Source: Lycium barbarum | Lineage: Eukaryota > Streptophyta > Magnoliopsida > Solanales > Solanaceae | Assembly: GCF_019175385.1 (NCBI RefSeq) | Contig: NC_083341.1 | Coordinates: 64,203,800 to 64,267,799 of the forward strand | Reading direction: 5' to 3' | DNA length: 64,000 bases | Part shown: piece after piece, positions 10,049 to 64,000 of the stretch | How positions within the stretch are numbered: the stretch's first letter is position 1 | Layout: each line of letters begins with the position of its first letter | Translations under genes and position numbers: made by a program | Notes under the pieces: generated by a model | What the model was told of the DNA's origin: nothing | The model's input: only the letters and a program-made list of their open reading frames with translations | Database searches by the model: none

Positions 10049-10060
10049 TGATATCAGAGC
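10049..10060 (+). other. Primer-binding site of element A (tRNA-Met type, mutated)
   Basis: TGATATCAGAGC differs by one base from the usual TGGTATCAGAGC, complementary to the 3' end of initiator tRNA-Met. It lies 3 nt after the LTR end. Confidence 0.85.
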
Positions 10061-10103
10061 CCTAGGTTAACCGGTCTATAATAAAAGAGCGTGTCTAGTA
10101 GAG

Positions 10104-10145
10104 TCTCGTAGATCGGTGCGATGCGCTTCGTACTTATCTACGAGA
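10104..10145 (+). promoter_or_regulatory. Leader kissing-loop-like hairpin, element A
   Basis: Outer stem TCTCGTAGAT/ATCTACGAGA (10104-10113, 10136-10145) is 10 bp. Inner stem GTGCG/CGTAC has one G-U pair. The 8-nt loop ATGCGCTT has a GCGC core. It lies 44 nt past the primer site. The geometry equals that in B, E and I. Confidence 0.65.
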
Positions 10146-10257
10146 GACTATAGGACATATAGGAAACTTCACTTTCTTTCCTTCTTTCATGCTACTTTAT
10201 TCTAATTGGTATCTGGAACAATCGAATTGGCTCTGACTCTTATATCTTCTTTCTCAG

Positions 10258-16378: not shown

Positions 16379-16390
16379 TGGTATCAGAGC
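16379..16390 (+). other. Primer-binding site of element B
   Basis: TGGTATCAGAGC is the intact tRNA-Met type primer site, 4 nt after the LTR end. Confidence 0.92.
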
Positions 16391-16431
16391 AATTCGTCCT
16401 AAGGTTGTCTATGAGTCGTGTCCAGTAGAGC

Positions 16432-16471
16432 CTTATTTATAGGTGTGTAGCGCTCCGCACTTATAAATAGG
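16432..16471 (+). promoter_or_regulatory. Leader kissing-loop-like hairpin, element B
   Basis: The outer stem is CTTATTTATA/TATAAATAGG, with one wobble. The inner stem is GTGTG/CGCAC (16443-16447, 16456-16460). The 8-nt loop TAGCGCTC contains the self-complementary hexamer AGCGCT at 16449-16454. It lies 42 nt past the primer site. Confidence 0.7.
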
Positions 16472-16656
16472 AGGCTGCATGGCATTTAGGATTGTTACCC
16501 TTCTTTGTATCCTAGATCGTACTATAGAGCCGAGTCATAGGGTGTAAATCTTTAACCTGACATTTGTTGTTTACAGTTTGACCACGACTCATTCAGAAAG
16601 GATTATGGGTGATTCGAGGATTGCAATGATGACATGGGAGAGGATTAAGTTACACT

Positions 16657-31901: not shown

Positions 31902-32135
31902 AGGACGGACCGTCAACATACTCGACGGCCCGTCGAGTTACCTCGTCGATAAGTTTCTACGAAGTGACAATTCATCATATCATCATCAGATCGTCGACTT
32001 GCACCGTCGACATGATCGACGGTCCATCGAAGTGCTTCAACGGTGAGTTCCTGCAGAGTGATAAAAGTATACTCAGATCGTCAAGTTAGTCGTCGAGTAT
32101 GTCGACAACCGTCAAAGTGCAAAGACGACCCGTCG
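31902..32135 (+). repeat. CGTCGA / ACGGNCCGT palindrome cluster, F 5' LTR
   Basis: GACGGACCGTC lies at 31904-31914 and CTCGACGGCCCGTCGAG at 31921-31937. Many CGTCGA and CCGTCGAAGTGC half-sites follow. The 3' LTR equivalent (44413-44655) has TCGACGGTCCGTCGA at 44529-44543. Confidence 0.85.
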
Positions 32136-32190
32136 AAGTGCAAGCCGAGATGGAAAATGACTAGGATTGATTATTCTGAGTTTTGACTTG

Positions 32191-32198
32191 TATAAATA
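32191..32198 (+). promoter_or_regulatory. TATA box, F 5' LTR
   Basis: TATAAATA lies in CTTGTATAAATACCTG, about 55 bp after the palindrome cluster. The same sequence is at 44705-44712 in the 3' LTR. Confidence 0.7.
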
Positions 32199-33079: not shown

Positions 33080-33097
33080 TGGCGTCGTTGCCGGGGA
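33080..33097 (+). other. Primer-binding site of element F (tRNA-Asp type)
   Basis: TGGCGTCGTTGCCGGGGA is 5 nt after the LTR end. The known Athila site has TGGCGCCGTTGCC, so one base differs. Confidence 0.85.
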
Positions 33098-33192
33098 ATA
33101 CGGTTTTGAAATTACTAAATAATGTTTACTCTTCTTAAAGTTTTTGTCATATTCCAACACACCTCGTTTGCTACCTTGTAAACCAGGTGATC

Positions 33193-34320: not shown

Positions 34321-34328
34321 AAGGTAGT

Positions 34329-36155: not shown

Positions 36156-37362
36156 AGACCATTTTCCCATGCCTTTCATCGATCAGATGTTGGATAGGCT
36201 GGGTGAGAGGTCTTACAATAGCTTCCTAGATGGATACTTGGGCTATAATCAGCTCAACATTGCTTTGGAAGATCAAGAGAAGACGACTTTTACTTGCCAG
36301 TATGGGACGTTTGCGTTCAGCCGAATGCCCTTTGGGTTGTGTAATGCACCAACCACTTTTCAGAGGTGCATGATGTCGATCTTTTCTGACATGGTAGAGG
36401 ACTTCTTGGAGGTATTTATGGATAATTTCTATGTTGTGGGTGATTCATTTGATGATTGTCTCGACCATCTGGGTCAAGTGCTGAAAAGATGTGAGGAGAC
36501 AAATCTGGTGCTAAATTAGGAGAAGTGCCAGTTTATGATGAAAAAAGTGATCGTCCTCGGTCATAAAATCTCTGAAAAGGGAATAGAGGTCGATGAAGTG
36601 AAGATAGATGTGATTGCAAAACTTCCTCCACCCATCTCAGTCAAAGGTGTCCAAAGTTTCTTGGGACATGCTGGGTTTTACAGGCTCTTCATCGAAGACT
36701 TCTCCAAGATTGCTAACCCGATGTACAAGATTCTTGAAAAAAAGGCTAAGTTTGTATTTGATGACAAGTGTCGAAAGGCGTTTGATGAATTGAAGGAGCG
36801 CCAGACTACTGCTCCTATGATTGTTACTCCGGATTGGTCATTACCTTTTGAGCTGATATGTGATGCTAGTGGGTTTGCAATAGGTGTTGTGCTTGGTCAG
36901 AGGCACAATAAAATTATACACCCGATCTACTATGCTAGTAGGACACTTAATATGGCACAGATGAACTACACGGTGACCGAGCAAGAACTGCTTGCAATAG
37001 TTTATGCTTTTGAGAAGTTTCGGTCCTATTTACTGGGATCCAAGGTTGTGGTGTACACTGACCATGTTGCGTTGAGGTATTTGATGGAAAAGAAGGAAGC
37101 TAAGCCGCGACTGATTCGTTGGGTCCTTCTGTTACAAGAGTTTGATTTCGAAGTAAAAGATCGAAAGGGATCCGAAAATCAAGTCGCAGATCATTTCTCT
37201 AGGCTTAAAGAAACTGGGCTGCCAGCAGAAGAACTTGACATTGAACATGCGTTTCTAGATGAGCAAGTTTTGGCGGTGTCTATGCAGGTGGCGCCTTGGG
37301 TTGCTGATTTTGCTAACTACTTGGTGACTGGTGTCATTCCCGACGAGATAAAATCGTATTAG
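36156..37362 (+). pseudogene. pol: Element F reverse transcriptase and RNase H, broken
   Basis: It reads MPFIDQMLDRLGERSYNSFL, then GYNQLNIALEDQEKTTFTC and RMPFGLCNAPTTFQRCM. The catalytic box is FMDNFYVVG instead of F-M-D-D: the second Asp codon is AAT at 36424-36426, so RT would be inactive even without stops. A TAG at 36517-36519 replaces an expected Trp-like position. RNase H follows, with [39 protein letters not shown] and [10 protein letters not shown], and the frame ends at TAG 37360. Apart from this, long stretches are open, so F is younger or better kept than A and B. Confidence 0.92.
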
Positions 37363-37374
37363 AAAAAAACGTTT

Positions 37375-38618
37375 TTGCGGGATGTTCGTCAGTACTATTG
37401 GGATGAACCATACTTATTCAGAACTTGCGCTGATAACATTATTCGGCGTTGTGTCCCAGAGAGTGAAGTATTGGAGATTTTGAAGGCTTGCCACGACTCT
37501 CTTGTTGGGGCACATCATAGTGGTACGAGGACTGCTTCCATGGTTCTCGAATGTGGTTATTATTGGCCTATTCTTTTTCATGATGCCAATCTGATGGTGC
37601 GTTCTTGTAATCAATGCCAAAGGCAAGGTAATATTGGCAGGAGGCAAGAGATGCCTATGAACTTTATAATGGAGGTTGAAGTGTTCGATGTTTGGGGAAT
37701 TGATTTTATGGGTCCCTTTGTAAGCTCTTGTGGCTTGAAATACATCTTGGTGGATGTTGATTATGTCTCCAAATGGGTAGAAGTGGTGGCTTTACCTAAT
37801 AATGAAGCCAAGAGTGTCATGGGATTCTTAAAAAAGAACATATTTACTCGTTTTGGTACCCTAAGGGCAATAATCAGTGATGGTGGTTCTCACTTTTGCA
37901 ATAAAGCTTTTGCGGGATTGATGGAGAAGTATGGAGTCAAGCATAGGGTGGCAACCCCGTATCATCCTCAGACAAGCGGGCAAGTTGAAGTCTCTAATCA
38001 GGAGATAAAGGGTATTCTAGAAAAGACGATGAATGCAAACAGAACTGATTGGGCCCGCAAGCTCGATGATACTCTATGGGCTTACCGGACTGCCTTCAAG
38101 ACTCCGATCGGGACTTCACCCTTCAAGCTAGTTTCAAAAAGGCATGTCACCTGCCAGTTGAACTTGAACATAAGGCTATGTGGTCCTTGAAGAAGCTGAA
38201 CATGAATTGGGAAGAAGCGACCAAACTCAGGTTGTTTCAGTTCAATGAGATGGATGAGTTCCGCTATCAGGCATATGAAAGTGCAACGCTATACAAAGAG
38301 AGGATGAAGCAATATCATGACAAGAAAATCCTGAAGTGGGAATTCTACAAGGGTGACCCCGTCTTGCTATTTAATTCTAGATTGAAGCTGCTTCCGGGCA
38401 AATTGAAATCACGGTGGTCAGGTCCCTTTGAACTGGTAAGTGTCTCACCCCATGGAGCTATTGAATTGAAGTCCGAATACGGAACTCAGACATTTAAGGT
38501 GAACAGGCAGAGGGTGAAGCACTACCATGGTACGATTGACGGAGATAGAATTATGGACCGATATCGGTTGAAGCACCTTGGGATGAATGTTGAAGCAGCA
38601 AGTCCCGAACAAGGGTAA
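37375..38618 (+). pseudogene. pol: Element F integrase, one frameshift
   Basis: The zinc region reads [13 protein letters not shown]..., then [18 protein letters not shown] with the paired cysteines. The core has [10 protein letters not shown] (first Asp), [14 protein letters not shown] (second Asp) and [12 protein letters not shown] (Glu), so the D,D,E triad is intact. Near 38130-38150 the frame shifts, and the C-terminus continues as [20 protein letters not shown] and LKSRWSGPFELVSVSPHGAI, typical of Athila/Tat integrases, stopping at 38616-38618. No chromodomain is present, as expected outside the chromovirus branch. Integrase would insert cDNA in the nucleus. Confidence 0.92.
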
Positions 38619-40215
38619 ACTGATAACATCGTCGTGCTGCGACGTTAAATTAAGCACTTCTTGGGAGGCAACCCAAGTTTAAAATTCTGTAATTTTTTTT
38701 TAGGTTTTAGATTTTTATTTTTTTACAGGTGTCGAGAGCGCAGGAACTGAAACTCAAAAAAACCAGCAAAGTTACACCAAAGCATAAATACGGGTCGTCA
38801 ATGTGTTGACGGACCCTCAATGTGCAATGACGGTATGAAGAGCTGAGATTCTGAGGCTTAGGAATTGCTCATCTGCAGGTAAGTAAATCGACAAGCATAT
38901 CGACTGACAGTCGACATGTTCGACGACGCCGTCGAAATGCTCGTCAGCAGGTATGCTCTGTCCTGAAATTTTTGTCGTCTTTACGCTGTAAAAACTTCAA
39001 AAAAAAATTCTTTAAGGGCAACAGTCGCGATCCTTAAATAAAACCAAAAGACCCAAAAACGGGTAGAGCAGTTATTCACCTCCCTTTTCAAATTCATAAC
39101 TCCCTCCATATTCACTTCATAACTCCCACAAATTCCTCCATTAAATCAGCACCCATTACACTGAACAACCCTAAAATAACAACACCCACTCATTTTTCGA
39201 AGTTACTGCCCCAGTTGCTCTGCCTTCTCTGAGTTTTCTTTAATTTTGGGTCAAGTATTCTTCAAAGTCTCTTTCTCTATCAGGTGTGTACATGAATGTT
39301 GGCCTTTACTTTGTTTTTATGTTGGTTGTTATTTGAAAATTGCTAAAAGAGATGACTAGGGTTCCTAAATTAAGTGAAGAATTGGATTTTGGAACCTAGG
39401 CTGTAATTGATGGTATTGAAACAAGTTGGGTGTGCTTTTAACTAGGATACATGGGTAATATAGGTTATGTGAATACTAATGGTATAGATCATGACTTAGG
39501 GTTTGTATTTGTTGAATGAAATCTATGTTTGAATTGGCAAAATTGTGAAATTATGGATGGGGGAAGGGAATTTGGTATGATTGCTGTTAGATGGACTCAT
39601 GGGGACGAGAATATCGTGCCCCCATTGAGTCGGCGGGCATTTTGATCAACTTTTTGATTCATTATGCCTGCCAATGGTTCGAGAAAGAGGAACTCTGTTG
39701 AAACATGATGCTTGAGGAGTGAAGTCTGACCAACTCTAACGGGTCGGAGGGTATTTGGATTAAAAATCTTGGTTTGAAATCATTATACCCACCAAACATA
39801 ACCTGGATAATGGCCTAAAGTCCAAAAAGTCAAAAATGAGGGTGAAGTCTGAGTAACCCGAAACCCCAAAACCGCAAATGTGCCTAATAATGAAAAAATG
39901 GTTCTCTGATTGGTTCAAGTGGACAACGCAAAGTCAAAAAAAATGTTTGATGTCTGTTAACTGTTGGTTGCTGCTGCAGGGTCGTAAACATGTCGACGGC
40001 ACTGTCGACAGGTCGACGAACCGTCTTTGTACAAAGACGATCCCGTCGAGCTGTTTGATGGTCCATCGATTGTTTCGACGGCTCGTTAAAGCACATCGAT
40101 GGTCTGCAGACTGAGACATCAGAGAACTGAAACACAATTTTTTTTTCTCAAAAACTAACTGTTTAGATTTCAGTTGTACGGATTGACTAGATTGTGGTTT
40201 TTGTTGATCACAGCT
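38619..40215 (+). other. Element F spacer between pol and the downstream ORF
   Basis: About 1.6 kb without a convincing gene. It contains two CGTCGA-rich patches (about 38800-38955 and 39985-40105), including CGTCTTTGTACAAAGACG at 40022-40039, a perfect 18-bp palindrome. A pyrimidine-rich stretch ending TTGTTGATCACAG directly before the ATG at 40216 resembles a splice acceptor, which would fit a spliced RNA for the next ORF. Small frames around 39878-40135 overlap the palindromes and are not counted. Confidence 0.6.
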
Positions 40216-42719
40216 ATGGCGCCACCTAAGTTGACAATCACCCGAGGGGGTGGCTCGAGGGAAATGCAAAGAGCAACGGGTCGAAGGAGGCCCGGTTACC
40301 AACCCACACTTAGAGACGAGGGGTCGGATGATGAGCCTGAGGTTATGCCCGTGAAGAAGACCAGGGCTGATCCTCCCTAGTGGAACAGGCAGGTCACAGC
40401 ACCGGCTCCTACACCTCCCAGTTCCCCCAGTCTAACGAGGAGGAATCATCTATATCTGGGTCCGGTGATGGATCCGAGGAGGAGGGATCAGAGGCTGCAT
40501 CTAGAGATGTCTTACCTGCTGCGCGAGCACAGTCTACTAAGGAGGCTGCTCATTCCTCTCAGGTACATGCTAGATCCCAGCCCCGTCAAAGCTCACAGTC
40601 GGGTGATGATGAGACTGATACTGATACTGACGCCGAGCCAGCTAGGGGTCGGGAACTAAGAAGCAAAAGGCTCGAGGATCATTTTACTGTTGAGGGTGCT
40701 AGGAAACTGTGTGAATATGGCATTGAATTGAAAGGTGATGACACTCAGCATGAGAATCGCACCATAAATGAGGAGCGGCGGATCAGTTTTGAGGGGCTAG
40801 AGATCTTACCCAGGGCCAGGGAGCTCATTCGCCACGATCAGTTAGAGTTTATGCGAGAGCCGCCTGGGGAGTATTGTCCGGTCTTGGTTCGTGAGATATA
40901 TGCTGCATATGGGGCTTTGATCAGAAGAGTTAGAAAGAAGCTCCAGAAATCGCCACTGAGCAAGGTTGAGATTAGAGGGGTGAGTGTTGATATATCTGCC
41001 CAGGCTATCAACAGAGTATATTTCGGTGATAACTACACCGCCCTGAGGCAGACGATTGAGCTTGAAGATAAATTACGGAGGTGCAAGGAATAGTCCGTCA
41101 GGGACTGGGTATCTACAGCGGTTGGTCGCCCGACCAAGAGAGTAGAGTGTATTAATTTGAAGAATCGAATAAAGAAGCAGTGGTTGACTCTAGAGGGAAA
41201 TTTTTGGTGGAGCGTGGTGCAGATGCGACTTCTCGCCACTCAGGCCGATAATGCTCTTACGGTTGACAGGAAAGTTGTTGTAGCCGTATTGATGTCCAGA
41301 TACCCGATTGATTTCAGGGCGTTGGCTAGTACGGAGATACAGTTGACGGCTTCCCAGCCCAACACTTCCCTGACATTTCCATGCCTGATTATAGAGCCTG
41401 TTCGGAGGTCACAGGTGCTGTGGATAGATGATATCGACCACGTAAATATAGCTTCGTCAGTTTATTCGAAAGAAAAGAGCAAGAATGAGGCCGTTTATGA
41501 GAGCCAGGGGGAAGCAGATGGGTTTCTAGTGGTACTTGGAGGGGTAGGGCTTCCCAGCCCAACACTTCCCTGAGCACTTGGAGGGGTAGGGCTTCCTAAC
41601 CCAACACTTCCCTGACATTTTCATGCCTAATTATAGAGCCTGTTCGGAGGTCACAAATGCTGTGGATAGATGATATCGACCACCGGATTACATCTTCGTC
41701 AGTTTATTCGATAGAAAAGAGCAAGAATGAGGGCGTTGATGAGAGCTAAGGAGAAGTGGATGGATTCCTAGTGGCACTTGGAGGGGTACCCCTACCGCAG
41801 GAGCCTGTTCTTCCCGGGGCCGCGGGTGACTCTACACTGGAGTTACCGGCCATTGCTACCCCTATTATTGAGACTGTCCAGGCTGCAGATTCTGAGACTC
41901 CAGCTGTTGATGTTGGTGATGATTTCGTGGACACTCAGATTGCTATTCCTGACCCACAGACGTCAGCTCCACCGCCTCCGAGTTCAGTCCCACAACCAGC
42001 GGGTCCAACTGCACAGCCCCAGGGTACTGCTAGAGTTGATCCATATGCCTTCTTAATGGAAAACTTTAGGAAATTTGCAAAACAGGCGGCTACAGCAGAC
42101 CACTCGTCAAAGATCACAGTAAACCAGCTGGATGATTATGTGAGGACGAGAGTGGAAGAGGCATTAGATCCTGTGAGGACGACACTGTCCGCGCGGTTGG
42201 ATGGCATTGACTGTATTGGAGATGACTCGCCCAACAACTTCCACAGATGTCATGAGGGCAGAGTTAGAGCAGCTTAAGGTTGATACTGCATTATTGAAGG
42301 CCCGTGATCCGAGCCTAGTAGCAGAACCACCGTCTATTGCGGAGGATATTGAGGAGGAGCTTCCAGTGGTGAAATTAGTGGCGCCTACCGCAGTAGGTGA
42401 TTGGGGAAAGAGAAATAGAGTGGCCCGTGATGAAGAGGAGGTGCGAGAGAGCACTCGCACAAGGGGCCCGAGTATGGAGGAGCAGCAGGTGGCAGAGGCC
42501 ATTCAGAGATCGCTCATAGAGAATGTCCAGTTTAGGACAAAAGGAGCCACCTCGAGTAGTGCTCCCAGTGGCGAGACATTGCCAACACCCCTTCCTACTC
42601 CAGTGCCAGTGCCTACGGGCACAACTACTGATGTTGCTACTGATGCTGCTACAGAGATTGCTGTTGGTGCGATTGCACCACCAGATGCCTCGCAGACCGA
42701 TGAGTCGCGAGATGAGTAG
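40216..42719 (+). pseudogene. Element F downstream ORF (Athila extra ORF, plant transposon protein-like), broken
   Basis: ATG 40216 gives MAPPKLTITRGGGSREMQRA, and a frameshift near 40378 leads to an acidic Ser/Glu-rich region (NEEESSISGSGDGSEEEGSE). From about 40660 a folded domain follows, LEDHFTVEGARKLCEYGIEL to LLATQADNALTVDRKVVVAV, interrupted by a TAG at 41091. Its order (SVDISAQAINRVYF, then VWW-like NFWWSVVQMRLL, then LTFPCLI) resembles the putative plant transposon protein domain found in Athila-type elements. After a tandem duplication (41349-41790) comes a Pro-rich and then helical region, MRAELEQLKVDTALLKARD, ending at 42719. Position matches the env-like ORF of Athila, but I see no clear signal peptide or membrane segment. 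Confidence 0.65.
41349..41790 (+). repeat. Imperfect tandem duplication, about 200 bp, inside the downstream ORF
   Basis: GCTTCCCAGCCCAACACTTC...CTTGGAGGGGTA occurs twice (from about 41349 and 41591), plus a short extra copy of its edge at 41549-41590. The second copy has several base changes, so the duplication is not very recent. It breaks the reading frame. Confidence 0.85.
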
Positions 42720-44204
42720 CGCGCCTAGTGTGCCACAGGTATTCCTACTCCCTGGTATTACTTTTTCTGCATTGGGGACATTGCAGACTTTTTCAGTTGG
42801 GGTGGGGGTATTTGATGTATCATATATGTGTTTAGGACCCCCTCGGCTTTTCTTTGCCATGGTTCTTTTCTTGAGGGGTTTATTTCCTATTGAACCTGGA
42901 ATGTTTAGGTCATGTTTAGATAAAGTAAAGTATTGTTGACTTATGTGGTGGTGGTTTGATTAATTTAGGGATATCTTAGCTTGATTTTTAGAAAAAAAGT
43001 ACTCCCTTCCAAAAATTTTGACAAAATGGACTTGGTTGTTTAATTGACATGCATGCTTCTTTGTGTGACATTTAGATTATTGGGCTACCTTCTATGTGGA
43101 ATTATAGCGAGGAGACTAGTGTGTTGACAATTCTGATGCCATGTGTTGTGAGGTTTTTGTAGTTATATTCTCTAATTTTTTATGTGATTTAGAACTTACC
43201 TGGTTAGTCGTGCCTGCATTCTGAAGATAAGTGAAGCTGTGAAATGATCTTAGGCTTTGTTTGTGTTAGGAAACCCCTGTTTAGCCTGAATATCAGCCTA
43301 CTCATAGATTAATATCCCTTCTTAGCCATTTTGAGCCTACCTGTCTTTGATTAGCCGTAACAAGCCGATACACGTTCTTAATATCCATCTTTTTTGCACC
43401 CGGTCCCTCCTTGGCACTAAAATAATAAGATTGAGGATACAAGCTTAAATTGGGGGTGATAGGTAGACTAAATGGAAGATGAGGCATAAGCCTAAAGTGG
43501 GGTGAAGTAAAGTGCCAAGTTAAAAGACAGCGGTGTGGTAAGTGTAAAAGAAAAACAAAACAGCAACCAAAGAAAAAAAAAGAGAAAAATGTATGGAGTA
43601 GTAGAATCACAATAAAAACCACACCAAGGCAACAAAAAGAAAGAAGGGAAGAAAACAAAAGGCAAAAAGGGTAAAAGAGAAGAATAAGATGTAGTGTTCA
43701 AGGAGGGTGAGTCACTGTTATTCAAATATCTATCCTACCCGTCCCCAAGCCTACATTACAACCTTGAAAAAGTCCTACTGTGATCACAGCCGAACTATCC
43801 AAAGTCGAGGGCGCTGAAAATAAGGGCAAGCTTATGGTATTTGCATGCATAGCTAGAGAATTTCTTTGTGAGTGTGAGTGTTTCTCTTCTCCTTTGTCTT
43901 CTATCCCATTCAGTGTGTACATATATGTTGGGACATTCTTTGGTCTTTGTGAGTGCATTAGAATTTGTTAAGTGACTGCTTCCCGTGAGTCTTGATTCGT
44001 GTGCGCGATGGTTTCTGTGATAACTAGATGTCATAAATTGAAGCCTCATGGTTAGTTGCAACGAGTCCTTGATTGGTTTTGTTTTGATTGGGGGGAGAGT
44101 TATTGTGATACACTTGATGTGCCGGAAGTTAATTGCCACAACCACTGTAGACAGCTTTGCTTTGTGATATCAAGACATTTGTAGATCGAGGCTGTTAGTT
44201 AACA
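42720..44204 (+). other. Element F 3' non-coding region
   Basis: No gene recognised. A purine-rich stretch at about 43545-43690 has many AAAG and GAAAA runs. TTAAATTGGGGGTGATAG at about 43446 resembles the true polypurine tract (TTAAGTTGGGGGTGT) 800 bp further on. Confidence 0.6.
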
Positions 44205-44241
44205 TGCTTGAGGACAAGCAAAGACTTTAAGTTGGGGGTGT
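44205..44241 (+). promoter_or_regulatory. Element F hairpin and polypurine tract
   Basis: TGCTTG-AGGA-CAAGCA (44205-44220) is a 6-bp stem with AGGA loop. AAAGACTTTAAGTTGGGGGT follows, directly before the LTR at 44242. This mirrors the hairpins next to the LTR in the chromovirus elements. Confidence 0.75.
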
Positions 44242-45594
44242 TGATGTGCCCGGAATTTTGGCACATCTAATGCTTTTTAACTCTAAGTTTTACTTGTTTT
44301 CGAGCAAGTTTGTGTTAGTTTGATGTGTTTTGTGTGATGTGCAGGTATTTTTAAATTAGAATAGTCGGAAAGTGAAAAAACGAGGAAAAGAAACAATCTG
44401 TTCTGATAAGCATAAGGACGAACCGTCAACATCCTCAACGGCCCATCGAGTTGCCTTATCGATATGTTCCTGCGAAGTAACAATTCATCATATCATCATC
44501 AGATCGTCGACTTGCACCATCGACATGATCGACGGTCCGTCGAAGTGCTTCAACGGTGGAGTTCCTGCAGAGTGATAAAAGTATACTCAGATTGTCGAGT
44601 TGGTCGTCGAGCATGTCGACGACCGTCGAAGTGCAAAGATGACCCGTCGAAGTGCAAGCCGAGATGGAACAGGACTAGGATTGATTATTCCGAGTTTTGA
44701 CTTGTATAAATACCTGTTTAGGTTTTATTTTTCAGACATCTGGAGTTTTAGACTAGGAGTAATTACTTTTGAGTTGTTATTGCTTTTGAAGATTTCTAGA
44801 CAATTACATTCATTACTTTCAAGTTTTATTCGTAAGCTCAATACAATAATTCAATTATGCAATCTTCAACCTTTTATTGTTTTCTTGTTGCCATGAGTAG
44901 CTAAACACCTTTACTAAGGTTGTGAACCGAAGGATGGGTGTTTTGTGATTGGGGATCGTGAAAGATATACGCATAATGGATTGTTAGGGTTTATTTGTTC
45001 TTCGTATTCATCATATAGTTAGTGGTTGCAAACATTAGCTCACGCCATAAAATTTAGTTTATTTGGGAAAATTGCTAGGGTTAGGTAAGAACAAAAAACA
45101 AGAACTCAGGGCTTTAAACCTTGTTTAATAAATTCACTTAGGAATAATAAGAGGAATTTACTTCGCATAATTAACCGTTCTTTATGCATACTTTCTTATC
45201 TTTGGAAAAAGTATAGAAAGAAATAATCTTTTCTTATTGAGAAAAATAGTTTAGATTCACATAGAGGTTAAGTGCATCCATACTAGCAGTCCATTAGAAG
45301 TATATCAAGATCGATACCCATGATCCTACACTTTATCTAACGGGGACACAACCTTGGTTCTTTTTACCCATATATTTACAACTTTAAATTTCCAGTCACT
45401 TTAAATTAGTCCACAAACCAAATCAACTATAAACCTTTTTTCTGAAATACACCAAGACCGCAAGATTAGTACAATACTCATTTAGTAAACTTTTCACACC
45501 ATATTCCCTGTGGGATTCGACCCCAACCTCGTTGGGTTACTATATTTGACAACGTCCGCGTTATACCATTAATAGGTGTAATTTGAGTGTATCA
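44242..45594 (+). repeat. Element F 3' LTR
   Basis: 1353 bp, starting TGATGTGCCCGG and ending GTGTATCA. It is highly similar to the 5' LTR with scattered substitutions and small indels. AATTC follows as the probable target duplication. Confidence 0.92.
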
Positions 45595-45599
45595 AATTC

Positions 45600-45746
45600 G
45601 CACGATAAGAATAAAATAATGGAAGTTTCCTAAATGCCCTATAGCCTCTCGAGGATGGGTATGGACGTCTACGCACCAATACACAAGACTGTACTAGATA
45701 TTTCTCTTGTACTTGTGAGGCAGGTGAACCTATAGCTCTTAAACCA
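45600..45746 (-). other. Element E leader and primer-binding site (minus strand)
   Basis: On the minus strand, TGGTTTAAGAGC (45735-45746) is a mutated tRNA-Met primer site. It is followed by GAGGCTATAGGGCATTTAGG, which resembles the leaders of A, B and I. This orients E. Confidence 0.75.
45647..45688 (-). promoter_or_regulatory. Leader kissing-loop-like hairpin, element E
   Basis: On the minus strand the outer arms are TCTTGTGTAT and ATCCTCGAGA (8 of 10 positions pair). The inner arms are GTGCG and CATAC (one mismatch, one wobble). The 8-nt loop TAGACGTC has the self-complementary GACGTC (45664-45669). It lies 47 nt past the primer site. It is partly decayed but has the same geometry as A, B and I. 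Confidence 0.55.
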
Positions 45747-53543: not shown

Positions 53544-56500
53544 TGTTATATCCCGTATTTTCGTGTATTCGGGAAAACTCGAAATAATGTTGATTTGAAT
53601 TAATATATGTGTGTGTTGTTCATGAAAAGAATATGAATGTGGAAGTGTCGAGGAAGGCTAAGGGCGAAAATTGGAACTTCGGAAATTAGTTTCGGGAATT
53701 TCAAAACAAGAATTATTATCAATTGGGCTCAAAAAATAAAAGTTGAAAATGAGGCCCAAAAAGGAGGAGGGTGGCCGGCCATCACTTGGCCCAAACCCCT
53801 CTAAGTTAATGAATATTTGACATGTGCAAATTAATATAAGTAAGCACTTATCCATTGGAATATTCAAGAAAGAAGTCAAGGAGAAAAACAAGCACAACAA
53901 GAACAAGAGGAGCAAGGCATTCGGCCATGCCCTCAATTTTTGCCTCCTTGAAATCTTGATTTAAAAATATTTTTCTTGTGGTATTCCTACCATATTAAGG
54001 GCCCTCTACAACATGGTGCAATTGTTTGGAAAGGAAGAGCCCTTGTTTCCTCAATATGACCACATGTTTGAGTGAAGAAGATTGGAGAAAAAGGTAAGAA
54101 TTCATTCCATATTATTACGTTATGAAGGTTTGTTTATGTTGTAATACATGGAAATGAGTAGAATTCATGAAAATATGGAAGTTTGCAAAGTGGGTGTGCA
54201 TAGCTATGTGTGGCCGTGTGTATGTATTAATGTATACATGTGATAAGTTGAAATTTATGTTGTATTCTAGTTATGTGTAGGATGGAATTCATATTGAGAA
54301 TGAAAGTTGAATGGATTTGATGGAAGTTGGAAGAATGGAATGTTGGCCGTGTGGTATTAAAATTGGAATGGGAACAAATCACTTTTGCTTACCATGTTAG
54401 TTGTGTTGTTGTGATTCTTACAATATAAGTAAAGATGAAATGATGTAAGTTTGCATTGAAATGGAATGTAGAAGTTTATGTCGTTTTAGTATGATTTTAT
54501 GACATTATGGAAATGGGGTTGTTAAGGTGCAAACTATGATGATTGTTGATGAACTTGAAATATGGAAACATGTCATGAATATGTATGCCAAAGATTAGAA
54601 GCTTTGGATGAATTATGACTTTGGCGGGAAGTTTGTATATTATGTATATCTCATGAATATTTTGTAGAAGTGATATGAAATGCTTCTAAATTGTGTTGTA
54701 ATGATCTTAATTAGTAATGAATACGAGAATGTTGATATTGATTTGAAAATATGAAGTTTGAATGAAGGGTATGACACTATGTCGGAAAGAAGGTTAGTTG
54801 TGCCATATTGTATGTTTTGTTGTAGTTGTTGTTATGGTTGGTGTTGTTGTTGGGTTGTTGTTGACTATTTTGGCCGAGTTGAATTCTCGGGGATGCTATA
54901 TGTATAGGGGAAATGCTGCCCTAATTTCTGTAGAAAAGTGTTGACTTGAGATTTAAGCCTAAAGCCTTATGGTTAACCTTTGGTAAATGTGACCATTTGC
55001 AGATTTTGGACGAAACGGGAAGTGAACTTGGAAAGGCGTAAAGTGCGTAAAAGGTATGTAAAGCTACCCGATTCTTCTTTTGGCATGTCCTAGATGTACT
55101 AGGATCGGATTCGAGCCTCGGAGAATATTCTGCTCATCGGAATCCGCGTCTGAAATTGTCACCTTTTCGTTCAATAGAATTGAACCCTTTTAGTATGCTT
55201 TATTGAAAAATTATGCAAAATTTCTCCAAATCACTTAGGAAGTTATGGAATGCCCTAGGACCTCTGTAGGTGACCCCATAAGCTTAATACGCGTAATTTG
55301 AGCCCGCCGCTTTGGTTGTCCCGAGGTGGGCCCACTATTTCCGATTTTACCCTTATGGTCCTTTGCAACTTGATTTCAAGTAATTTTTAAGGAAATGTCT
55401 TAACTACTTTTCCAACTACTAATGATACTTATTCTGGATACTATATTGAGTCCCTGGAAAGGTACGATATTTTGGTATTACGTTTAGCTCCACTATTCCC
55501 GCTTTGCTCTCTTATTGTACTATTGCCTTATCTTCGAACAATATAAAAAAAATGAAACGTTTTAACTACCCTTTTAACGACTAAGGAAAATTGTTTTAAT
55601 GATTCCCTCGAGTCTGGTAAACTATTTTGGAATATGAAAATGATCCCAGAAGGATGATTCTTCCGTAACTCATTATGACATACGACATACACCTACTATG
55701 ATTCTGTCCGACTTCATTGATTTGATTTGTCATTCGATATGCCTCATTGAGTCTCTGGAAATCTGTGATATTTTTGTTGCATTTAGTCTCTCACTACTCC
55801 ATTCGTGGATGCCCCAATGTTTCCCACACTGAACCCGGCCCAAGATATGTTGTCAAGCGTATTCCATTGCATTGTTCGCCGTGCCTCGATGTGAGGGGGC
55901 AGGTATATATATACATGGGTTTTGGAGTATGTTGTGCCATGTACACACATTCTGATATGATATGATCTGATATGGCCATTTGATACGATATGATATGTTA
56001 TGTTACGGGGTTATCCCCTACTCTGTTTCTTATAAGTGGTGGCACCAGCGTCGGGGGTGGCCACGTTCTGTTCCGCCGAGCCCTTGGCAGGGGCCGGATA
56101 TGATATGGTATATGTTTCTGAACACACTCCTCATGTTTTGAAAATATGCATTTGATACGTCGGATGTCACACTTACTTCTCTGTAAGTCCTGTTTCGGTT
56201 ATGATCTTGTTCCGTATTGGGACCAGGTACGACATATGTTTTCAACAAATACTATTTATGCTTTATGATCAATATTTTGCTAATCTGGATATTCTGTCCA
56301 TTTTCTGTACCTTCTGCTTTGATTAAGACTTCGATTACTACGTTCTATGCTTTACATACTCAGTACATATTTCGTACTGACCCCCTTTCTTCGGGGGCTG
56401 CGTTTTCATGCCGCGCAGGTACACAAGACAGATTTGCTGACCGCCTGCCTAGGACATCTATTATGCTATATTGGGAGCGCTCTTTTGTCCAGAGCCTATA

Positions 56501-56818
56501 TGTTGGTATAGTCCGTCGCTATTATATATGTATGCTATTCAGGTGTATGACGGGGCCCTGTCCCGTCTTATGATTATGTTATGATCTGTAGAGGTCTGTA
56601 GATATACTTGTGCGGGTTCTGTATATGTTTGGGTATGATATGATCTGTGACAGCCTCATCGGCTTCCATGTACTGTGTCGGTTCTTTCATGCTAATTGCC
56701 AACGCCAAGTGACTTTTATGTTTAAAAATATTCTGTCCTTAAGGGAATTTGGGTTATTGGGTACGCTTGGGTGTCCTGCACGGACACTAGTCGCGGCCTA
56801 CGGAGTTGGGTCGTGACA
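53544..56818 (+). repeat. Element I 5' LTR
   Basis: 3275 bp, starting TGTTATATCCCGTATTTTCG and ending GGGTCGTGACA. It contains GATAT-rich repeats at about 55955-56005 and the triple stem-loop block. Frames on either strand here (53658-53936 minus, 55747-55965) recur in the 3' LTR and are not genes. Confidence 0.92.
56361..56418 (+). promoter_or_regulatory. LTR triple stem-loop block, element I 5' LTR
   Basis: Stem 1 is CAGTAC/GTACTG, stem 2 CCCCC/GGGGG, stem 3 CTGCG/CGCAG, and the fourth GACGGG/CCCGTC at 56549-56554 and 56562-56567. The block is about 400 bp before the LTR end. Confidence 0.7.
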
Positions 56819-56822
56819 GAAG

Positions 56823-56834
56823 TGGTATCAGAGC
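56823..56834 (+). other. Primer-binding site of element I
   Basis: TGGTATCAGAGC is the intact tRNA-Met type site, 4 nt after the LTR. Confidence 0.93.
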
Positions 56835-56874
56835 GGTTCATCCTCGGAGTGTCTACAGACCGTGTCTAGTAGAG

Positions 56875-56916
56875 TCCTGTTTATCGGTGTGTTGTGCACC
56901 ACATCTATAAACAGGA
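56875..56916 (+). promoter_or_regulatory. Leader kissing-loop-like hairpin, element I
   Basis: The outer stem TCCTGTTTAT/ATAAACAGGA is a perfect 10 bp. The inner stem is GTGTG/CACAT, with one wobble. The 8-nt loop TTGTGCAC has self-complementary GTGCAC at 56894-56899. It is 41 nt past the primer site. It is the best-preserved copy in the window. Confidence 0.75.
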
Positions 56917-59089
56917 AGCTACAGGACATTTAGGGTGTTACCTTTATTTGATTCTTAGATCGTGCGATAGAGCCAGCTGTAGGAAATGAATCCCTTTCTT
57001 TACTAACCCTTGATTTCAGCTGGAGAACGGTATCGACGTAAGACAGCGACTGACGATATTGGAAGCTACACAGTACACAGGTAAGTAATGATATGAAAGA
57101 TGTATGCTGGGTAAGGTGTTTGGAATACGATTAAAACATAATGTTGAAAATTAAAAAGGAAAGTGTAGCAGGTGCAGTTTGAGTTGGACATGTGAGGTAA
57201 GCCTCGGCATATTTATACTTTGATCTGAAATTGTTAGCCCCGTGTGGCTATGATGTGATATGATATGATACGTATATACGTATATGTGTTGGCCCTGTGA
57301 GGCATAGTTGGTGTTTCCTGTGTACAGGTTTTGGGATAGTAAGAAATACAAAGGAACCTCTGCCCAAATTTTTCTAGGAATATGAAGAGGAAAATGAGAT
57401 ATAAATTCTTAACCTGTCTTGAAGGTCGATACCGATAGGATAAATTTATTATGTGGATTAAAAGTTTAAGAGGTACCCTCCATGTCATTTGTAAGAAGCA
57501 TTGCCCTTATCGGGAAAATTTTATCTCGAGAGGGCATATACGAGTAGCGAATTCATAATTTATTTGGAGGGACCAGAAATATGTTCTAACCCTATTTTGT
57601 TTTAGGATAGCCCATGAAAAGGGCAAAAATGTCCAACGATTAAGTTTCCTCTAATTGGAAGAATACAAAACGTATGACAAGTAGTCGGGAATTGAGTGGT
57701 TCGCTCACGACTCAAATATATATATACAAATATGGAGGTAATTATGTGAATTAAGTACTAAAAGATTCCGCGAAGTTCGTTGGATTCTAGCTTTCTTTTG
57801 CTGGTGGTCGCAAGATACCCTACTACACATTTTATCAGTTTTCCTCGACTGGTGGGAGATGGAATTTGTGGAATGAAAACTCAATCTCGTGGGTTGTTTA
57901 GAAACATACATGCATGAACGTAAATATTGAGGGTTTACAGGGGGCAACACGGTAACTATATAGCTAGAAAAATAAAAGAATTCTCGCTAGGTCGGGGTGG
58001 GACCCGCTACGAGAACGTTCTGAAAAGTTGTCAAGACCCCGACTTGTCTTAAATTACGTGACAAAGGGCTGTGCGGGGCAATCAATGTGATTATACCGGT
58101 CTTAACGTGCCTAAATGCATTGAAGTTGTAAGGTTAAGCGTGCCAGGGCCAGAGCAATTCTGGGATGGGTGACCCCCTGGGAAATGTGCAAAATTTTTTG
58201 CAATCATAGGTATAAGAGACGAATAAGAAATTCGGGGTAACCTAAAGGGAATTAGGATATGTGGAATGGTTAGAAACTTTATAGGGGTCGCACGAGCTGA
58301 GACGGGTTGGATTGTTAAAAAGAAAGAAAAAGCAGCGCAGCCCTGAGGTTAGAGTAAATTTGAACAAGTGATTGAAGATGTGTTGTAAAAGAAATGGTAG
58401 TGATATATATATATATGTATGCGTAGGGCCCCCATTTATGACTGTGTCGATTGATTGGTGAACCCTAATAGCCAGTGTTGTAACATACCGGAAACATTAA
58501 CTGGATAGAATTTACGAGAAAAAGGGCAAGGTGTGGTATCAATGTGCGAAATCGATTGATACTCGGTTTGCTACCGGTTGGGATTGAAAGATCCTAATAC
58601 AATGATGTTTTGAAAGAAAGGAGAATAATCGAGTGGAAGGTCAGGAGATCCAAATGTTAGAAGAAGTGAACCGTGAGAAACGTAATTAAGCGGAGCCTCT
58701 GAAAGAGTCGACGGGCAAAGTACGAAGTCAATTGCGAAAGTAAACAAAGATGGAATAGTACAGGGCGAAGGAAAACTTATGGCTTGAAATGATGAATTAT
58801 GTGAATATCGAATGATTCGATTGTCGAGCAAATAGAATGACAGGTAAGGAATGGGTATGAAGAAAGAATGTGATTATTATGAGAAAAACAACTACGTTAA
58901 TTATATTACTTGAGTACCAGCTATCGTATAAGATTGCGTACTATATACTTGTGATTCTGTTAATGTCTCGAAGAGAAAATTAAGTTGCAGGTCAGAAAGA
59001 AAAGACATGAATATGGTAGGAGTATAACCCTAAAAAGGAGGGGGAGCGAATGAAAGTATGGTAAAGTAAGTATAAATGAAAACAATTGA
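56917..59089 (+). other. Element I interior without recognisable gag
   Basis: Nothing resembling gag, protease or RT was seen. 57225-57380 resembles the pre-polypurine tail of B and D (GCCCTGTGAGGCAT, AACCTCTGCCCAAATTT). 58085-58190 is 5S rRNA-like. Both suggest rearrangement of the interior. Confidence 0.55.
58085..58190 (+). pseudogene. 5S rRNA-like segment inside element I
   Basis: It aligns with plant 5S rRNA from about base 5 onward: TGATTATACC (GCGATCATACC in 5S), AGGTTAAGCGTGCC (A-box region AAGTTAAGCGTGC, 58131-58144), then GGGATGGGTGACCCCCTGGG (C-box region, 58162-58181). The middle is diverged. The usual 5S terminator context is absent: after GGGAAATGTGC comes a T6 run. This could be a captured 5S pseudogene or part of a Cassandra-type LTR, which carries 5S sequence. 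I cannot tell which. Confidence 0.75.
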
Positions 59090-60890
59090 CATGCAGAAGA
59101 TTGAAGCGATAAAGGATTGGCCTAGGCCTTCGACGTCGACTGAAATACGTAGTTCTATGAGAATGGTCAGATTATAGCCTATGTTCCCCGGCAGCTCAGA
59201 CCGCACAAGGGAAAATTAATTCGCTCATGATTTGGGACTAGCTACGGTGATTCGTGCTTTAAAGATATGGCGGCATTACTTATATGGCGCCTGCGTTGAT
59301 ATTTATACGAATCCTAAGGGCTGCCAGTATACGTTTTAAGAAAAAGGGAGTCGAATTCGCGGTAGAGAAGATGGTTCAAATTATTGAAAGATTATGATGT
59401 TAATATTTTGTGCCACCCTAGAAAAGTTAAAGCGGTGACAGACGCACTTAGTCGTGAGTCTACGGACGGCTTGACCGGCGTACATTCAGAAAAAAAGAAT
59501 TGGTCTGTAAAACTCTTTAGTCAACTAGCCTTGGAGTCCGTTTGGTCGGTTTTGAAGATATTGGAATTTCGTTCGAAGAAGTTACCGAATCATCGATCAT
59601 GGGAAAGGTAAAGCAGCGCCAGTTTGAGGATCCTATTCTGGTGACGTACAGAGATACGACCTTTGACAAGGAAATGATCCAGCTCGAAGTTTTACCGGAT
59701 GAGCATTGTTATACAGAGGCAGATTATGTGTGCCCGACATCGTAAGGCCTGTTGACCAGTGCCCAAATTGTCAGCAAGTTAAAATTAAGTATCAGAAACC
59801 AGGTGGACTGTTTCAGGAAATGGAATTCTGACTTGGAAGTGAGAGATAATTAATATGGATCTCATTACAGGTTTGCCGCGCACCCCACGGAAGTATGATT
59901 TCCATATGGGGTATGGGTGATAGGCTGACAAAATCAGCCCATTTTCTCCCCGTCAGGACTACTTATTCAGTTGAGGATTTTGCCAGGCTATATATATTAA
60001 AGGAATAGTGAGACTCCACGGAGTTCCTATATCTATTGTCACTGACAGAGGTATTCAGTTTATGACTAATTTCTGGAGGTTTGTTTTCAGGAAGGATTAG
60101 GGGCTCAGGTAAGTCTGAGCATAAGTATTCCATCTTCAGAACGACGGACAGTCCGAGCACTCTATACATACACTAGAAGATATGTTACGGGCCTGTGTTA
60201 TTGAATTCAGAGGTAGCCGGGACGTTCATCTACCGTTAATCGAGTTTGCTTATAATGACAGCTACGATTCTAGCTCGATACGAGGCTTTGTAGGGCAGAA
60301 AATGCAGGTCACTGATTGACTGGTTTGGTATTGGCAAAACAGGATTAATCGGTACAGGTATGATCCGACAGGCAGTTGATAAGGTGAAACTTATCCGAGA
60401 GCGGCAATTAGCAGCCCAGAGTCGACAGAGATCGTATGCTGACAAACAGCGTCGACTCTTAGAGTTCCAGGTCGGCGATTGGGTACTTTTGAAAGTATCG
60501 CCTATGAGAGGCGTAATGCTATTCGGCAAAAAGAGTAAGCTCAGTCCGCGATATATCGGACCCTATCAGATTATTTGAAAGATTTGGAATGTCGCCTATG
60601 AGTTAGATTTACCATCTGATCTGGGAGCGGTACATCCAGCATTTCATGTATCTATGCTTCGCGAATGCATTGGTGGCCCTCCCAAAATATTCTCAGTAAG
60701 AGAGATTCAAGTGATGGAAGAATTGTCTGACGAAAAATAATCTGAAATCATTCTGGATCGCCAGGTGCCGAGATTACGCACTAAAGATATACCCCTATTA
60801 AGGTCTTATGGCAAAACAATAATGGAGGAGAAATGACCTTGGAAGTAAAGGACGGAATGAAAGGAAGTGGCCCCACTTATTTCTTATGCC
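59090..60890 (+). pseudogene. pol: Element I RNase H, integrase and chromodomain relics
   Basis: RT/RNase H linker pieces (QKIEAIKDWPRPSTSTEIRS) start near 59097. RNase H end motifs RRWFKLLKDYDVNILCHPRK and VTDALSRES lie at about 59360-59460. Integrase core pieces follow by frame switching: DLITGLPRTPRKYD near 59860, a VTDRGIQF-like second Asp region near 60040, and EFAYNDSYDSS near 60240. The C-terminus is open at 60360-60577 (KVKLIRERQLAAQSRQRSYA, then MRGVMLFGKKSKLSPRYIGP), followed by AVHPAFHVSMLREC and a chromodomain start, SEIILDRQVPRLRTKDIP. Many stops and shifts are present. Most of the RT is missing. Confidence 0.8.
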
Positions 60891-61003
60891 CACAGGTAAT
60901 CTAAATTCCTTACTTGATTACATTCATGGAGAATGTGTATCAATTGTGCTGACCGTAAAAGAAAGCTCCCCTGAAGTACTTACAGACCCTATAAGACTAA
61001 TCT

Positions 61004-61039
61004 AACATTCGAGGACGAATGTTCTAAAGGGGGGGAGGA
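61004..61039 (+). promoter_or_regulatory. Element I hairpin and polypurine tract
   Basis: AACATTCG-AGGA-CGAATGTT (61004-61023) is a perfect 8-bp stem. AAAGGGGGGGAGGA (61026-61039) primes plus-strand synthesis immediately before the LTR at 61040. Confidence 0.8.
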
Positions 61040-64000
61040 TGTTATATCCCGTATTTTCGTGTATTCGGGAAAATTCGAAATAATGTTGATTTGTAAGGAA
61101 TGAGGCCATATGTTGATTTGAATTAATATATGTGTGTGTTGTTCATGAAAAGAATATTAATGTGGAAGTGTCGAGGAAGGCTAAGGGCAAAAATTGGAAC
61201 TTCGAAAATTAGTTTCGGGAATTTCAAAACAAGAATTATTATCAATTGGGCTCAAAAAATAAAAGTTGAAAATGAGGCCCAAAAAGGAGGAGGGTGGCCG
61301 GCCATCACTTGGCCCAAACCCCTCCAAGTCAATGAATATTTGACATGTACAAATTAATATAAGTAAGCACTTATCCATCGGAATATTCAAGAAAGAAGTC
61401 AAGGAGAAAAACAAGCACAACAAGAACAAGAGGAGCAAGGCATTCGGCCATGCCCTCAATTTTTGCCTCCTTGAAATCTTGATTTAAAAATATTTTTCTT
61501 GTGGTATAACTACCATATTAAGGGCCCTCTACAACATGGTGCAATTTTTTGGAAAGGAAGAGCCCTTGTTTCCTCAATATGACCACATGTTTGAGTGAAG
61601 AAGATTGGAGAAAAAGGTAAGAATTCATTCCATATTATTACGTTATGAAGGATTGTTTATGTTGTAAAACATGGAAATGAGTAGAATTCATGAAAATATG
61701 GAAGTTTGCAAAGTGGGTGTGCATAGCTATGTGTGGCCATGTGTATGTATTAATGTACATGTGATAAGTTGAAATTTATGTTGTATTCTAGTTATGTGTA
61801 GGATGGAATTCATATTGAGAATGAAAGTTGAATGGATTTGATGGAAGTTGGAAGAATGGAATGTTGGCCGTGTGGTATTAAAATTGGAATGGGAATGAAT
61901 CACTTTTGCTTAACATGTTAGTTGTGTTGTTGTGATTCTTGCAATGTAAGTAAAGATGAAATGATGTAAGTTTGCATTGAAATGGAATGTAGAAGTTTAT
62001 GTCGTTTTAGTATGATTTTATGACATTATGGAAATGGGCTTGTTAAGGTGCAAACTATGATGATTGTTGATGAACTTGAAATATGGAAACATGTCATGAA
62101 TATGTATGCCAAAGATTAGAAGCTTTGGATGAATTATGACTTTGGCGGGAAGTTTGTATATTATGTATATCTAATGAATATTTTGTAGAAGTGATATGAA
62201 ATGCTTCTAAATTGTGTTGTAATGATCTTAATTAGTAATGAATACGAGAATGTTGATATTGATTTGAAAATATGAAGTTTGAATGAAGGGTATGACACTA
62301 TGTCGGAAAGAAGGTTAGTTGTGCCATATTGTATGTTTTGTTGTAGTTGTTGTTATGGTTGGTGTTGTTGTTGGGTTGTTGTTGACTATTTTGGCCGAGT
62401 TGAATTCTCGGGGATGCTATATGTATAGGGGAAATGCTGCCCTAATTTCTGTAGAAAAGTGTTGACTTGAGATTTAAGCCTAAAGCCTTATGGTTAACCT
62501 TTGGTAAATGTGACCATTTGCAGATTTTGGACGAAACGGGAAGTGAACTTGGAAAGGCGTAAAGTGCGTAAAAGGTATGTAAAGCTACCCGATTCTTCTT
62601 TTGGCATGTCCTAGGTGTACTAGAATCGGATTCACGCCTCGGATAATATTCTGCTCATCGGAATCCGCGTCTGAAATTGTCACCTTTTCGTTCAATAGAA
62701 TTGAACCCTTTTAGTATGCTTTATTGAAAAATTATGCAAAATTTCTCCGAATCACTTAGGAAGTTATGGAATGCCCTAGGACCTCTGTAGGTGACCCCAT
62801 AAGCTTAATACGCGTAATTTGAGCCCGCCGCTTTGGTTGTCCCGAGGTGGGCCCACTATTTCCGATTTTACCCTTATGGTCCTTTGCAACTTGATTTCAA
62901 GTAATTTTTAAGGAAATGTCTTAACTACTTTTCCAACTACTAATGATACTTATTCTGGATACTATATTGAGTCCCTGTAAAGGTACGATATTTTGGTATT
63001 ACGTTTAGCTCCACTATTCCCGCTTTGCTCTCTTATTATACTATTGCCTTATCTTCGAACAATATAAAAAAAATGAAACGTTTTAACTACCCTTTTAACG
63101 ACTAAGGAAAATTTTTTTAATGATTCCCTCGAGTCTGGTAAACTATTTTGGAATATGAAAATGATCCAGAAGGATGATTCTTCCGTAACTCATTATGACA
63201 TACGACATACACCTACTATGATTCTGTCCGACTTCATTGATTTGATTTGTCATTCGATATGCCTCATTGAGTCTCTGGAAATCTGTGATATTTTTGTTGC
63301 ATTTAGTCTCTCACTACTCCATTCGTGGATGCCCCAATGTTTCCCACACTGAGCCCGGCCCAGGATATGTTGTCAAGCGTATTCCATTGCATTGTTCGCC
63401 GTGCCTCGATGTGAGGGGGCAGGTATATATGTACATGGGTTTTGGAGTATGTTGTGCCATGTACACACATTCTGATATGATATGATCTGATATGGCCATT
63501 TGATACGATATGATATGTTATGTTACGGGGTTATCCCCTACTCTGTTTCTTATAAGTGGTGGCACCAGCGTCGGGGGTGGCCACGTTCTGTTCCGCCGAG
63601 CCCTTGGCAGGGGCCGGATATGATATGGTATATGTTTCTGAACACACTCCTCATGTTTTGAAAATATGCATTTGATACGTCGGATGTCACACTTACTTCT
63701 CTGTAAGTCCTGTTTCGGTTATGATCTTGTTCCGTATTGGGACCAGGTACGACATATGTTTTCAACAAATACTATTTATGCTTTATGATCAATATTTTGC
63801 TAATCTGGATATTCTGTCTATTTTCTATACCTTCTGCTTTGATTATGACTTCGCTTACTACGTTCTATGCTTTACATACTCAGTACATATTTCGTACAGA
63901 CCCCCTTTCTTCGGGGGCTGCGTTTTCATGCCGCGCAGGTACACAAGACAGATTTGCTGACCGCCTGCCTAGGACATCTATTCTGCTATATTGGGAGCGC
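61040..64000 (+). repeat. Element I 3' LTR, truncated by window end
   Basis: It is collinear with 53544-56478. It has 27 bp near 61096-61122 that the 5' LTR lacks, bounded by two copies of ATGTTGATTTG. It contains the stem-loop block at 63881-63938, where stem 1 has one mismatch (GTACAG). Confidence 0.92.
63881..63938 (+). promoter_or_regulatory. LTR triple stem-loop block, element I 3' LTR
   Basis: As in the 5' LTR, except that GTACAG replaces GTACTG in stem 1. Stems 2 (CCCCC/GGGGG) and 3 (CTGCG/CGCAG) are unchanged. Confidence 0.65.

What the first reader, a model, noticed from the sequence alone, without database searches (positions are those of the whole stretch)
56875..56916. Dimerisation-type (kissing-loop) hairpin in the leader of four Ty3/gypsy elements
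Seen: 41-47 nt past the primer site, A (10104-10145), B (16432-16471), E (45647-45688, minus) and I share one plan: 10-bp outer stem, 2x2 internal loop, 5-bp inner stem, 8-nt loop. Outer stems differ completely yet pair: TCTCGTAGAT/ATCTACGAGA, CTTATTTATA/TATAAATAGG, TCCTGTTTAT/ATAAACAGGA. The loops of B, E and I hold different hexamers that are each self-complementary: AGCGCT, GACGTC, GTGCAC. A has a GCGC core. Known: retroviral dimer initiation hairpins (HIV-1 SL1) sit just past the primer site and have a palindromic loop hexamer such as GCGCGC or GTGCAC. Inference: these plant elements pair their genomic RNAs by a kissing loop, with family-specific loops that would favour self-pairing over cross-pairing.
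Basis: partly seen in the sequence, partly recalled or inferred. Interest (0 to 1): 0.93.

Follow-up and report, generated by a model that had tools for sequence, protein, structure and literature searches.

The report
Kissing-loop hairpin of plant retrotransposons
A genome, by its relatives likely a plant's, holds over twenty thousand matches to a hairpin pattern that mostly sits, where checked, just past the start-of-copying site of jumping genes, and in the copies read its loop usually spells one of six self-matching six-letter words, which likely lets two RNA copies of the same family clasp each other loop to loop, much as in HIV.

Summary
The hairpin is real and far more widespread than the four copies reported. 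The structure is a 66-nt rod: conserved lower stem, variable 10-bp stem, 5-bp stem, 8-nt loop. The window's genome (1.67 Gb) holds 18,249 + 3,285 exact matches to two lower-stem patterns, none to the reversed patterns. In 196 usable copies of the first 200 listed, loop positions 3-8 are palindromic in 150, with six recurrent palindromes: GTGCAC, GCCGGC, GCGCGC, GAGCTC, GACGTC, GCATGC. None of 39 other 6-nt windows compared has more than one. GCCGGC appeared in a second list asked for after the hypothesis was set. Two one-sided neighbours of it are rare: 22 and 11 against 2,568. Stems tolerate G.U more than A.C, which points to RNA. Best reading: a dimer-initiation kissing loop that works like HIV-1 SL1. 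Dimers themselves were not tested.

The parts
56823..56834 (+). primer binding site of element I (TGGTATCAGAGC)
   Evidence: exact match; the tRNA-iMet label is recalled
56863..56928 (+). 66-nt hairpin rod of element I: lower stem 5+4 bp, upper stem 10 bp (56875-56884/56907-56916), inner stem 5 bp, 8-nt loop
   Evidence: (z -4.95)
56892..56899 (+). 8-nt loop TTGTGCAC of I; palindrome GTGCAC at 56894-56899
   Evidence: same loop in 47 of 100 listed genome copies
10049..10060 (+). primer site of element A (TGATATCAGAGC, one change)
10092..10157 (+). hairpin rod of element A; loop ATGCGCTT at 10121-10128, two changes from the ATGAGCTC loop of its nearest relatives
   Evidence: (z -4.45)
16379..16390 (+). 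primer site of element B
16419..16484 (+). hairpin rod of element B; loop TAGCGCTC at 16448-16455, one change from the TAGCGCGC loop seen 5 times
   Evidence: (z -1.66); its place in the tree is not supported
45735..45746 (-). primer site of element E (TGGTTTAAGAGC, two changes)
45635..45700 (-). decayed hairpin rod of element E; loop TAGACGTC (45671-45664) keeps palindrome GACGTC
   Evidence: not the predicted fold; with three other GACGTC leaders, support 99/96

Best explanation
The hairpin just past the primer site of these Ty3/gypsy-type elements carries, in most copies read, one of six self-complementary hexamers in its loop, and likely works as a dimer-initiation site: the loops of two genomic RNAs of the same family would kiss, seed the RNA dimer and so favour packaging of like with like. 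Shown from sequence: the hairpin, its place after the primer site where checked, its high copy number, stem covariation with G.U tolerance, and different palindromes at one fixed loop position that differ by paired changes. Inferred: that the palindromes pair between molecules, that this starts genomic RNA dimers in the particle, that dimerisation matters for packaging, and that different words keep families apart.
For: (1) Copy number: 18,249 and 3,285 exact matches to two lower-stem patterns in the genome, reversed-pattern controls 0. Of 20 places that were fetched, the script found a primer site and the hairpin in 18. (2) Loop positions 3-8 are palindromic in 80 of the first 100 listed copies and in 70 of 96 in the second list (4 odd-length rows of 100 dropped). 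Pooled 150 of 196; column shuffles give mean 36, maximum 57 in 5000. (3) Six of the nine hexamers seen at least 3 times there are palindromes; at each of 39 other 6-nt windows compared there is at most one. The 46 non-palindromic copies lie 1 (34), 2 (11) or 3 (1) changes from a recurrent palindrome. (4) Inside the loop, pair 4-7 is T-A 53, C-G 21, A-T 21 of 100; pair 5-6 is G-C 32 and C-G 49 of 96 in the second list. (5) In one 17-nt context: GCCGGC 2,568 copies, GCCCGC 22, GCGGGC 11. (6) Sample at round-number positions, 250 kb: the script found 13 leaders, 10 with a palindromic loop. (7) Stems: G.U 172 against A.C 27 cells in the first list, 69 against 23 in the second. (8) None of 31 leaders with a palindromic loop has a second copy of its hexamer between primer site and 110 nt past the hairpin (about 1.5 expected), so no obvious partner there. 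(9) Each of the six words self-pairs more strongly than it pairs with any other, without a kissing-loop energy term. (10) Two of the commonest words, GCGCGC and GTGCAC, are the main HIV-1 dimer-site words (passages of PMC516451 and PMC5874298), and five of the six words keep the two central G-C pairs that PMC5874298 calls critical.
Against: No dimer was seen; all evidence is comparative, in one genome. Copies are related, and the shuffles do not correct for that. On the tree (41 leaders, loop removed) the four palindromes then known need 5 changes over 33 rows (8 rows with other loops left out), but the independent-pairs test has too few cases to be significant (2 supported pairs, p 0.5). Both lists are the first 100 places on contig C1. 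In the loop, G.U and A.C deviations are about equal (9 and 10; 14 and 9), so the loop itself gives no clear RNA-over-DNA signal. GCATGC lacks the central G-C pairs. L038 has GGGCCC in another register. Three non-palindromes (GCACGC, GCGTGC, GTGCGC) occur 3 times each, all one transition from GCGCGC. The rare neighbours of GCCGGC need transversions, and the GCGCGC count in that context was not obtained. E and L039 are not predicted to fold this way.
Confidence: 0.85

Rival explanations
1. The palindrome is a DNA site for a two-fold symmetric protein (promoter or chromatin factor), and the hairpin around it is an inverted repeat that matters as DNA.
For: DNA-binding dimers also select palindromes; loop deviations show no clear preference for G.U over A.C (9 and 10; 14 and 9).
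Against: Six different palindromes at one place, all starting with G and ending with C, do not fit one factor. Stems show 172 G.U against 27 A.C, which a DNA-level inverted repeat does not explain. The word sits at the tip of the hairpin.
Confidence: 0.06
2. The hairpin is a Gag-binding, export or translation signal that acts as a single molecule; the palindromic loop is incidental.
For: Packaging and dimerisation signals overlap in retroviruses (recalled; titles and abstracts listed); a structured leader of a plant pararetrovirus serves RNA export (passage of PMC12786077).
Against: A monomer has no reason to keep loop positions 3/8, 4/7 and 5/6 complementary through paired changes; the two one-sided neighbours counted are rare.
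Confidence: 0.06
3. The loop pairs with a different partner, such as another stretch of the same RNA or a host RNA.
For: Ty1 uses two different complementary hairpins (abstract of PMC5454406).
Against: 0 of 31 leaders have a second copy of the word within the leader; a foreign partner would not force self-complementarity. Regions outside the leader were not searched.
Confidence: 0.03

Closest known systems
HIV-1 SL1 / dimer initiation site
   Same: stem-loop between primer site and gag; GC-rich palindromic hexamer in the loop; two of the same words, GCGCGC and GTGCAC (passages of PMC516451, PMC5874298)
   Different: unrelated host; no Rfam family reached its cut-off; six recurrent words in one genome instead of three prevalent ones; conserved lower stem with a variable upper stem
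Yeast Ty3 dimerisation site DS/PAL6
   Same: a Ty3/gypsy element with a palindromic hexamer (CUGCAG) at a hairpin tip, proposed to start dimers by a kissing loop (passages of PMC11381356)
   Different: it lies at nt 391-396 in the GAG reading frame, not just past the primer site; one word, no series
Yeast Ty1 kissing complex
   Same: loop-loop pairing starts the dimer (abstract of PMC5454406)
   Different: two different hairpins with complementary 7-nt motifs, not one self-complementary loop
Barley BARE dimerisation and packaging signals
   Same: a plant LTR retrotransposon said to have conserved dimerisation and packaging signals, shared by a Gag-less parasite (passage of PMC3735527)
   Different: a Ty1/copia element; the main text has 0 occurrences of 'kissing' and 'palindrom'

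Membership tests
Retroviral-type dimer initiation hairpin | lies in the leader just past the primer site, before gag | tested here: met
   18 of 20 fetched copies have the primer site upstream; a gag match downstream was shown for A only
Retroviral-type dimer initiation hairpin | stem-loop with a self-complementary hexamer in the loop, kept palindromic though its letters change | tested here: met
   150 of 196 copies, six recurrent palindromes
Retroviral-type dimer initiation hairpin | stem supported by compensatory changes | tested here: met
   few independent lineages
Retroviral-type dimer initiation hairpin | leader RNA dimerises, and loop changes abolish it | not testable with these tools
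   needs native gels or SHAPE
Retroviral-type dimer initiation hairpin | descent from the retroviral hairpin | tested here: inconclusive
   only two weak Rfam matches, microRNA models at 17-18 bits, E 0.095 and 0.72, far below their cut-offs; convergence is likelier (inference)
Ty3/gypsy LTR retrotransposon | gag, RT, RNase H, integrase in this order | tested here: met
   element A only: Retrotrans_gag, RVT_1, RT_RNaseH, Integrase_H2C2, SH3_Tf2-1 in order; that this order marks Ty3/gypsy is recalled
Ty3/gypsy LTR retrotransposon | paired LTRs and primer site | tested here: met
   element I: repeat copies 98.6% identical and primer site
Chromovirus | chromodomain at the integrase end | not tested
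   the nine pieces scanned gave no chromodomain; stretches further downstream were not scanned

The most novel reading that the evidence does not exclude
The loops form a self-recognition code: families in one genome hold at least six mutually mismatched palindromes that evolve by paired changes, so each family dimerises and recombines mainly with its own kind, and coding-deficient elements such as I ride along by keeping their helper's word; HIV-1 reached two of the same words by convergence.
Probability: 0.4. Interest if true: 0.88.

Novelty: new variant of a known kind. Interest (0 to 1): 0.82.

Why it matters
Dimeric genomic RNA is reported for retroviruses and yeast Ty1/Ty3 (passages), but a 2025 review of the plant LTR-retrotransposon life cycle does not use the word (0 occurrences of 'dimer'). 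If true, an abundant group of plant elements has a defined dimer site that can be tested with short RNAs, and a natural series of loop words in one nucleus would let one ask whether RNA-RNA recognition limits co-packaging and recombination between coexisting families.

Tried and rejected
Related sequence outside the genome: patterns and reverse-transcriptase searches gave nothing in viral contigs. In genome contigs the first pattern gave nothing and the second three records titled as bacteria, taken as chance and not examined further. Literature: searches for a printed description (a search by letters) showed none for plant Ty3/gypsy among the rows listed; most lists were capped and only open-licence papers are held. 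MicroRNA precursor: rejected. B's AGCGCT as a palindrome in its own right: doubted, since the TAGCGCGC loop is one change away. The GCGCGC 17-mer count was asked and never answered, so that table has one empty cell. The tree-based sign test lacked power.

Full report
Observation. A, B and I have complete 10-bp outer and 5-bp inner stems; such perfect hits occur 3 times on the window's + strand, 0 times on the - strand, and 3 times in 40 simulated 64-kb strands. E is present but worn: 8 of 10 and 4 of 5 pairs, and RNAfold does not predict it. The quoted third stem belongs to I. Folding the leaders shows a longer rod with a conserved lower stem of 5 and 4 pairs. On the four-sequence alignment 92.7% of cells pair, 6 of 24 pairs change on both sides, and slid controls reach at most 60.4% paired.

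Where it is. The window lies at G000:C5:64203800-64267799 of a 1.67-Gb genome. Element A has gag, RT, RNase H and integrase pieces in Ty3/gypsy order. Element I has 98.6% identical repeat copies taken as LTRs but no open frame of 120 codons between 56900 and 61100.

How common. The I/A-type lower-stem pattern occurs 9,129 + 9,120 times, the B-type 1,613 + 1,672 times, reversed controls 0. Twenty places of the first list were fetched; the script found the primer site and hairpin in 18. In 250 kb taken at round-number positions on contigs C1-C12 a script that ignores the loop letters found 13 leaders, 10 with a palindromic hexamer in the loop. The other three, GCGCGT, GCGTGC and GCGCAC, are one change from GCGCGC. 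Three more leaders seen by eye in the first 200 kb have GCGCGC, GTGCAC and, in another register, GGGCCC; the last 50 kb were not read by eye. The 28 leaders L004-L031 all have GTGCAC, but they were found by similarity to I and are not an independent sample.

The loop. In the first 100 listed copies, positions 3-8 read GTGCAC 51, GCGCGC 16, GAGCTC 10, GACGTC 3, and 19 other words once or twice. The second list was asked for after the hypothesis was noted. Of 96 usable rows it gave GCCGGC 42, GCGCGC 24, GCATGC 3, GTGCAC 1, and 26 non-palindromic copies. GCCGGC had not been seen before and is GCGCGC with both members of pair 5-6 exchanged. Pooled, 150 of 196 are palindromic against a shuffled mean of 36 and maximum of 57. 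The same script compared the 6-nt windows that start from 17 before to 22 after the loop's zero point: only the one at loop position 3 has more than one recurrent palindrome. A hexamer palindrome cannot fold on itself, so paired changes inside it point to pairing between molecules. Whole-genome counts in one 17-nt context give 2,568 for GCCGGC and 22 and 11 for two one-sided C/G neighbours; these need transversions, and the GCGCGC count could not be obtained.

RNA or DNA. In stems, G.U cells outnumber A.C cells 172 to 27 in the first list and 69 to 23 in the second. Both are mismatches in DNA, so selection on RNA pairing is the simple reading. In the loop the two are about equal (9 and 10; 14 and 9).

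Relatedness. A tree of 41 leaders with the loop removed groups E with three other GACGTC leaders (support 99/96), puts A nearest to GAGCTC leaders, and I among GTGCAC leaders; B's place is unsupported. The four palindromes then known need 5 changes over 33 rows, the least possible being 3. Eight changes at loop position 4 and seven at position 7 fit into ten joint changes. The independent-pairs test is too small to be significant. Loops could also have moved between families by recombination.

Mechanism. I commit to a kissing-loop dimer initiation site. Shown: structure, place where checked, abundance, palindromes, paired changes, and no second copy of the word in 31 leaders. Inferred: pairing between two RNAs, start of the genomic dimer, link to packaging. 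Loop-duplex energies are -7.9 to -12.1 for self pairs and -6.3 to -0.1 for the 15 cross pairs, without a kissing-loop term; GTGCAC with GCGCGC is the weakest barrier (-6.3, or -7.1 with the other flank). That different palindromes mismatch each other follows from their letters and is not itself evidence of selection for separation.

Known systems. HIV-1 uses mainly GCGCGC, GUGCAC and GUGCGC, with two central G-C pairs critical (passages of PMC5874298; PMC516451). Yeast Ty3 has a palindromic dimer site in a hairpin inside GAG (passages of PMC11381356), Ty1 two complementary loops (abstract of PMC5454406), and BARE conserved dimerisation and packaging signals named in passing (passage of PMC3735527). 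A 2016 review of Ty1/Ty3 packaging has 0 occurrences of 'plant' (PMC4974528). I found no description of this hairpin in the searches named under Tried and rejected. It works like a retroviral dimer site; descent from one is neither shown nor needed.

Noticed in passing
window 53587-64000 and G000:C5:64268119: A second copy of leader I lies 7,520 nt after the first, just past the window end, so the two 98.6% repeats look like part of an LTR-internal-LTR-internal tandem.
   Followed up: no
window 56900-61100: Between leader I and the second repeat there is no open frame of 120 codons, though the repeats are 98.6% identical; the element looks coding-deficient and would need a helper.
   Followed up: partly
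G000:C1:47997052 and C1:48005440: Two hairpin copies carry the same 13-nt insert in the 3' arm, the exact reverse complement of part of the 5' arm and loop start (read), as if templated by the hairpin.
   Followed up: no
window 31729-45598: An element with 93.8% identical repeats and a different primer site (near 33080) lies next to E's leader and seems nested in E.
   Followed up: no
L038 minus strand, near 8868: A diverged leader with loop AGGGCCCC: palindrome GGGCCC in register 2-7 instead of 3-8.
   Followed up: no
window 57070-57090, 10250-10258: Leaders contain splice-like motifs (CAG|GTAAGT after leader I, TTTCTCAG just before an ATG in A), so leader splicing is possible; read from the letters only.
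   Followed up: no
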